Of a stretch of 64,000 bases of DNA, positions 3,520 to 33,385 are shown piece by piece; position 1 is the stretch's first letter; every line of letters starts with the position of its first letter. Under the pieces are notes generated by a model. It searched no databases. It had not been told where the DNA came from and worked only from the letters and a program-made list of their open reading frames with translations. This stretch comes from Theodoxus fluviatilis. Taxonomy: Eukaryota; Mollusca; Gastropoda; Cycloneritida; Neritidae. The translations under genes were made by a program, and so were the position numbers. Location of the stretch: the NCBI GenBank assembly GCA_034096865.1, contig JAWQFJ010001320.1, forward strand, positions 62,001 to 126,000, read 5' to 3'.

Positions 3520-3666
3520 GCGGCGGGCCTGATAGTGCAGAGCTACACACACGAGCACAGCCATTGGAACTCTGTCAAGTCCCTTTCTCAGTGGCTCCAG
3601 GAGGAAGGCATACCCGCCCTGTGTGGCATCGACACCCGCATGATCACCAAGATGATCCGAGACAAG
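3520..3666 (+). CDS. CPS1: CPS exon a: end of small-subunit-like N-domain
   Basis: An open 49-codon exon between a pyrimidine-rich acceptor (ctctgtctgtgcag, ending 3519) and a strong donor (gtgagt at 3667). Readable landmarks are [18 protein letters not shown] and [15 protein letters not shown], matching the conserved HW...SL..WLQEE...G.DTR..TK..RDKG segment of CPS small-chain domains. It starts and ends in phase 0 and joins the next exon as [11 protein letters not shown]. The intron downstream carries decayed copies of this exon's 3' edge. Confidence 0.92.

Positions 3667-33385: not shown

What the first reader, a model, noticed from the sequence alone, without database searches (positions are those of the whole stretch)
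3520..31424. Minisatellites in CPS introns are seeded from the adjoining splice junctions
At six junctions the intron contains tandem copies of the exon edge plus its splice site: exon a donor (3 decayed copies), exon h acceptor (5 extra), exon i acceptor (about 39), exon i donor (8 extra), exon j acceptor (10 or more) and exon j donor (1 extra). Copy age varies from nearly identical to barely recognisable. Coincidence at six of about twenty junctions is implausible. It suggests a process that repeatedly duplicates exon-intron boundaries in this gene, leaving the true site at the array edge. I know of no named system that does this.
Basis: partly seen in the sequence, partly recalled or inferred. 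Interest (0 to 1): 0.85.

Follow-up and report, generated by a model that had tools for sequence, protein, structure and literature searches.

The report
Splice-junction repeat arrays in a snail
In a nerite-like snail, tandem repeats inside introns often turn out to be copies of the neighbouring exon edge with its splice site, an arrangement that I found described only from lancelets, under the name 'mirages', so the finding is real but not a new kind of thing.

Summary
A CPS-III-type carbamoyl-phosphate synthetase gene (11 exons, 22 junctions in the window) has arrays at the six named junctions. At four (a donor, h acceptor, j acceptor, j donor) the intronic copies clearly contain 20-45 nt of the adjoining exon; at exon i the arrays carry the splice site but only 4-14 nt of exon. 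The nine non-self blast hits of the 11 exons in the window all lie in the exon's own adjoining intron. It is not peculiar to this gene: among 35 first-pass exons of other genes of the same assembly (68 usable sides), 7 junction arrays contain the splice site against 0.78 expected from the density of interior arrays; extended to 58 exons, 8 against 1.24. Exon edges never match the opposite intron (0 of 136). The host's mitochondrial COX1 is 99% identical to Clithon retropictum (Neritidae). [quoted passage not shown] So 'no named system' is wrong and 'in this gene' too narrow, but an excess of boundary arrays is supported in a small sample. Likely basis: tolerated boundary-straddling tandem duplication with ordinary minisatellite turnover; the cause of the excess is unknown.

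The parts
3520..3666 (+). CPS exon a (donor GTGAGT at 3667)
   Evidence: tblastn; splice sites and open joined frame
3768..3805 (+). decayed copy of exon a 3' edge (38 nt, 92% identical), followed by GTGGAT
3958..3994 (+). weak decayed copy of exon a 3' edge (SW 16 against shuffle maximum 15.5)
4076..4120 (+). decayed copy of exon a 3' edge, followed by GTAGGT
22138..22419 (+). exon h acceptor array, unit about 47 bp (about 20 intron + 27 exon nt), 5 extra copies, runs 27 nt into exon h
   Evidence: TRF; copies
22393..22488 (+). CPS exon h
23944..24067 (+). exon i acceptor array, distal block (4 units of 31 bp)
   Evidence: TRF
24068..26575 (-). insertion splitting the exon i acceptor array; holds a reverse-transcriptase-like open frame on the minus strand (the ORF 24473-26617 as listed reads on into the array)
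   Evidence: ORF; array flanks; RT label recalled from the residues, not scanned against a library
26576..27670 (+). exon i acceptor array, proximal block (35 units of 31 bp), ends 7 nt inside exon i
   Evidence: TRF
27664..27759 (+). CPS exon i
27746..28358 (+). exon i donor array, unit 67/69 bp (first step 56), 8 extra copies, all with GTGAGT
   Evidence: TRF
30443..31097 (+). exon j acceptor array, unit 51-52 bp (18 intron + about 34 exon nt), 10 clean copies plus 1 decayed
   Evidence: TRF
31078..31267 (+). CPS exon j
31383..31416 (+). single extra copy of exon j 3' edge (34 nt, 94%), followed by GTGAGA
33099..33385 (+). CPS exon k (last CPS exon found in the window; no array at its junctions)
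11253..14255 (+). intronic 31-bp array not overlapping any junction (comparison)
29018..29682 (+). intronic 44-bp array not overlapping any junction (comparison)

Best explanation
These are 'mirages': minisatellites founded by a tandem duplication that straddles an exon-intron boundary. Such a duplication leaves one complete boundary at the exon edge and puts the surplus exon piece plus splice site into the intron, so the protein is unharmed and the event survives, while duplications inside exons are removed (inferred). The array then grows and homogenises by slippage or unequal exchange among its inner copies, while the exon-edge copy, held by coding selection, stays apart (pattern shown for exon j: first ten copies 93% alike, extra copies 75-84% to the edge; not for h). 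Splicing must use the exon-edge copy: every array site tested would give a frameshift or stop (shown in silico); exon definition is the likely reason (inferred). It occurs in several genes of this neritid snail, not just CPS (shown), at several times the rate expected from the density of interior arrays (shown in a small sample; cause unknown).
For: Matches only in the own adjoining intron: nine non-self hits in a blast of 11 exons against the window (E up to 0.01, low-complexity filter on); 4 of 22 CPS and 7 of 115 other edges (6 after dropping one simple repeat) against 0 of 136 opposite-intron tests (Fisher 10 of 137 against 0 of 136, p 0.0016). Eight splice-site-containing arrays in other genes: C2609 x2, C29 x2, C2078, C1380, C2638, C1331. 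Array edges pile up at junctions: 12 in the -60..+30 bin (115 sides) against 32 in eleven further 90-bp bins (p 1.5e-4). Founder model on the 35 first-pass exons, drawn without regard to arrays: 7 observed against 0.78 expected, p 1.7e-5 (6, leaving out the one with about 1 exon nt: p 1.6e-4). On all 58 exons: 8 against 1.24, p 4.6e-5. CPS gene body: 4 against 0.44, p 0.0011. Exon parts are ancestral: [34 protein letters not shown] and [11 protein letters not shown] align with human CPS1. Higher-order periods. Same anatomy as the published mirages.
Against: Junctions in the other genes were placed from Pfam exon hits and splice-site scores, not RNA; 4 of the 12 junction-zone arrays failed a hand check, and one of the 5 CPS arrays in the zone (h donor side, edge 29 bp off) holds no junction. 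Arrays at i acceptor and C29 share only 8 and about 1 exon nt. No read or transcript data: neither real copy number nor splicing is shown. h copies show no clear homogenisation (0.86 among themselves, 0.83-0.89 to the edge). Exon share of the unit is skewed to the intron side (mean 0.30 of 12 arrays, KS p 0.016), so founders are not simply uniform over the junction.
Confidence: 0.78

Rival explanations
1. Pure coincidence: a minisatellite-rich genome with short ancestral introns, where arrays start anywhere and some straddle junctions.
For: The genome is full of arrays (112 TRF rows in 64 kb, overlapping rows included). If ancestral introns were only about 300 bp, roughly a quarter of uniformly placed arrays would touch a junction (inference).
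Against: Other genes: 7 observed against 0.78 expected in the first-pass exons, 8 against 1.24 in the extended set, using collapsed intron length; no decline of array-edge density beyond the junction bin. CPS was chosen for its arrays; the first-pass exons were not.
Confidence: 0.15
2. A persistence effect: arrays start uniformly, but those anchored in a conserved exon edge are recognised or re-founded for longer than free intronic arrays.
For: The decayed copies at a donor and j donor were recognisable only because the exon is known; the edge copy is kept by selection.
Against: The founder test counts only TRF-visible arrays, and several junction arrays have identical or nearly identical copies over the splice segment and so look young (C2609 first array, C1380, C2078).
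Confidence: 0.2
3. Splice-site motifs themselves (CAGG, AGGTGAGT, pyrimidine tract) are sequences prone to seed minisatellites.
For: The junction arrays contain such a motif by definition.
Against: Fifty interior arrays are not enriched in donor-like or acceptor-like motifs against 1000 matched controls (p 0.25 and 0.22).
Confidence: 0.1
4. Reverse direction: minisatellites came first and exon edges were recruited from them.
For: Repeats spanning proto-splice sites are a published model for new introns (PMC3087553 section 16).
Against: The shared exon residues are conserved with human CPS1, so the exon edge is older than the array.
Confidence: 0.03
5. Assembly artefact.
For: Arrays are hard to assemble; the fetched stretches have N gaps and the assembly holds bacterial-looking contigs.
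Against: CPS copies differ from each other by several per cent in ordered patterns, an insertion sits inside one array, and the pattern recurs in six other contigs.
Confidence: 0.04

Closest known systems
Mirages of amphioxus (globins BflGb6 and BflGb9, PMC3087553: abstract passage and the whole of section 16 seen; PGBD5, PMC3902484: one passage seen; Adh3, Canestro et al. 2002: not held, known only as cited there)
   Same: Minisatellite-like tandem duplications spanning 3' or 5' intron/exon boundaries, many copies keeping AG or GT, inner copies homogenised with the cluster boundary excluded, several genes of one genome. Unit 10-72 bp in Adh3 and 150-160 bp in globins; here 28-82 bp.
   Different: Host is a gastropod, not a cephalochordate; up to 39 copies at one junction; six junctions of one gene affected; the excess over interior arrays is measured. 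Normal splicing and length or somatic instability are reported there, not tested here.
Intron creation by tandem duplication of AG/GT proto-splice sites (Rogers 1989; Zhuo et al. 2007; Gao and Lynch 2009; seen only as cited in PMC3087553)
   Same: Tandem duplication involving splice signals.
   Different: There a new intron arises; here existing introns hold the copies and no new intron was shown.
Ordinary intronic minisatellites
   Same: Turnover, period range, higher-order repeats.
   Different: The founder unit lies across a functional boundary and holds exon sequence.

Membership tests
mirages (amphioxus) | tandem repeat unit spans an exon-intron boundary | tested here: met
   h, i and j acceptors, a, i and j donors; eight in other genes, one of them with only about 1 exon nt
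mirages (amphioxus) | both 5' and 3' boundaries affected | tested here: met
   CPS 3 acceptors and 3 donors; other genes 6 acceptors and 2 donors
mirages (amphioxus) | many but not all copies keep AG/GT | tested here: met
   i acceptor 24 of 39 keep CAG; extra copies: h 5 of 5, i donor 8 of 8, j acceptor 11 of 11
mirages (amphioxus) | concerted evolution inside the cluster, boundary copy excluded | tested here: inconclusive
   seen at j acceptor (0.93 among the first ten copies, 0.75-0.84 to the edge) but not at h (0.86 against 0.83-0.89) or i acceptor (0.89 against 0.88)
mirages (amphioxus) | normal mRNA splicing in spite of the copies | not testable with these tools
   no transcripts; in silico no array site tested gives an open in-frame product
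mirages (amphioxus) | length or somatic instability between haplotypes | not tested
   second-haplotype search unanswered
mirages (amphioxus) | host a cephalochordate (all published cases found) | tested here: not met
   COX1 99% to Clithon retropictum, Neritidae; a matter of distribution rather than anatomy

The most novel reading that the evidence does not exclude
Exon-intron boundaries in this snail are preferred sites of tandem duplication, several-fold over intron interiors and not explained by the splice motif itself, so some boundary-linked process (for example co-transcriptional R-loops or nucleosome-edge breaks) repeatedly duplicates splice junctions, independently of lancelets, and supplies raw material for new introns and exons.
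Probability: 0.3. Interest if true: 0.8.

Novelty: new member of a known kind. Interest (0 to 1): 0.5.

Why it matters
Mirages were, in everything I found, a lancelet oddity. Finding them in a mollusc, in several genes and at six to nine times the number expected from interior arrays, makes them a testable general phenomenon. They bear on how introns lengthen, how a spliceosome picks one site among many near-identical ones, and whether such arrays feed intron gain.

Tried and rejected
Rejected: gene-specific process (other genes show it); exonisation of minisatellites (conserved residues); splice motif as general seed; amphioxus as host (COX1). Four of the 12 junction-zone arrays in other genes were dropped by hand (C29 at 9252, C1946 donor GAT repeat, C1946 acceptor about 20 bp off, L012 donor 44 bp off). 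One of 7 significant own-intron tests (C1014 donor, AGG repeat) was dropped from the count used. Loci L001, L002 (uninterrupted, bacterial-looking by eye), L007 (CPS itself) and L039-L042 (COX1 hits) were left out of the baseline; L032 was used only (no junction array). L055-L058 (contig flanks) gave no CPS exon by tblastn, one hit at E 0.17 aside, and entered only the motif test; C1312:1-42000 was not looked at. Papers opened to little use: zebra mussel and earthworm metallothionein (passages), C. elegans minisatellites (outline), intron review (two reference-list passages). No case outside lancelets appeared in the listings of searches (top rows only where more papers matched); that covers only the held open library.

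Searches were waits only; included waits.

Full report
What the locus is. The window lies at C1312:62001-126000 of a 965-Mb eukaryotic assembly. Eleven exons on the + strand encode part of a mitochondrial-type carbamoyl-phosphate synthetase: the joined translation matches human CPS1 in the PDB (5dot and 6uel, E about 6e-239). The residue that is Ser in human FGISTGN is Cys here (FGICMGN), which by established knowledge points to the glutamine-using CPS III type. All 11 exons are flanked by AG and GT and the joined 1452 nt stay open. No further CPS exon was found in the window by tblastn, in the 19 kb down to the contig end, or in the 20 kb upstream; the first 42 kb of the contig were not looked at.

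Host. A contig of the assembly carries a mitochondrial COX1 that reads through under code 5 and is 99% identical over its whole length to Clithon retropictum, Neritidae, Gastropoda. So the host is a neritid or close relative, on the assumption that this mitochondrion belongs to the main genome. The assembly also has bacterial-looking contigs (by eye).

The observation. Six junctions carry copies as claimed. Strongest: h acceptor (47-bp unit, 27 nt of it exon, five extra copies), j acceptor (52-bp unit, about 34 nt exon), a donor and j donor (34-45 nt of exon). Exon i is weaker on exon letters: 8 nt at the acceptor, 4-14 nt at the donor, though both arrays include the splice site. Blast of each exon against all 64 kb gave, besides self matches, nine hits, all at exon ends (one of them stopping 12 nt short of the end of exon a) and all inside the exon's own adjoining intron (E up to 0.01, low-complexity filter on). 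Edge-versus-own-intron tests were significant in 4 of 22, edge-versus-opposite-intron in 0 of 22.

Is it this gene only? Seven of them carry a junction array whose unit contains the splice site: L005, L006, L008, L018, L020, L024, L027. With 20 interior arrays in 79,041 bp of collapsed intron and 68 usable sides, 0.78 straddling arrays are expected (p 1.7e-5 for 7, 1.6e-4 for 6 without L018, whose unit holds only about 1 exon nt). Larger stretches raised this to 58 exons in 27 contexts, 115 usable sides (116 in the founder model); one of them, C2609, was extended after its arrays had been seen. There 12 complex arrays have an edge between -60 and +30 of the exon core, against 32 in the eleven following 90-bp bins (p 1.5e-4). 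By hand, 8 of the 12 contain the splice site (copy counts, edge copy included): C2609 acceptors (82 bp x4, 54 bp x6), C2078 donor (58 bp x8), C1380 acceptor (41 bp x5), C2638 donor (52 bp x8), C1331 acceptor (45 bp x3), C29 acceptors (about 67 bp x4 in L024; 28 bp x7). From 24 interior arrays in 109,820 bp, 1.24 are expected (p 4.6e-5 for 8). In the CPS gene body 0.44 are expected and 4 TRF-visible ones seen (p 0.0011), but that gene was picked for its arrays. CPS (4 of 22) against other genes (6 of 115) on exon letters is not clearly different (Fisher p 0.055).

How it works. The exon parts of the units are conserved protein-coding sequence, so the exon edge is the source. A boundary-straddling duplication leaves a complete boundary at the exon and is tolerable; this is inference from the anatomy. 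At j the first ten copies are 93% alike but the extra copies are 75-84% to the edge; h (0.86 against 0.83-0.89) and i acceptor (0.89 against 0.88) show little contrast. The i acceptor array predates an insertion with an RT-like frame. Use of array sites would be harmful: none of 5 (h), 8 (i donor), 11 (j acceptor) or 23 AG-bearing i acceptor copies gives an in-frame open product (the +56 i donor is open but out of frame; the j donor copy was not tested). The splice motif is not a general seed: 50 interior arrays show no excess of donor-like or acceptor-like sequence. The unit leans to the intron side (mean exon share 0.30 of 12 arrays; lengths read by eye), as expected if long exon duplications are less tolerated (inference). 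Acceptors are hit more than donors in other genes (6 to 2), too few to judge.

Compared with what is known. [quoted passage not shown] it says the mechanism of generation is unclear. PMC3902484 (one passage seen) reports tandem repeats over splice sites in lancelet PGBD5 and cites troponin C. The original Adh paper is not held. The anatomical features tested are met, concerted evolution only at one of three arrays; the host differs. The listings of searches showed no case outside lancelets, which does not prove absence. Hence: a new member of a known kind, in another phylum, with a measured excess over interior arrays.

Limits. No RNA, no reads, predicted junctions in other genes, a small baseline, and most genome searches unanswered. 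The cause of the excess is unresolved.

Noticed in passing
24068-26575: An insertion with a reverse-transcriptase-like open frame on the minus strand (ORF 24473-26617) splits the 31-bp exon i acceptor array, so the array predates it.
   Followed up: partly
1-3280: A 44-bp array of about 74 copies upstream of exon a that continues into the preceding contig sequence (L057 9529-10000).
   Followed up: no
46852-56936: The stretch after exon k, over 30 kb, holds a 42-bp array of about 158 copies and 29-bp arrays of about 20 and 100 copies; no CPS exon matched there in the blast.
   Followed up: partly
17213-22092: About 4.9 kb of CATCCC-like repeats start 48 bp after the exon g donor.
   Followed up: no
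46581-46621, 60646-60705; L057 2661-2701 and 3593-3634; L058 503-543 and 2781-2821: A short AAGGTCA..TAAAGGTC-like motif of 17 bp in 2-3 tandem copies recurs at several places.
   Followed up: no
L039, L040 (C10175, C16360): Two mitochondrial-type COX1 copies: one reads through under code 5, the other has one TAG and differing ends, possibly a nuclear copy.
   Followed up: no
9716-9819: The glutaminase cysteine is kept (FGICMGN; human has FGISTGN), suggesting a CPS III type enzyme in a gastropod.
   Followed up: partly
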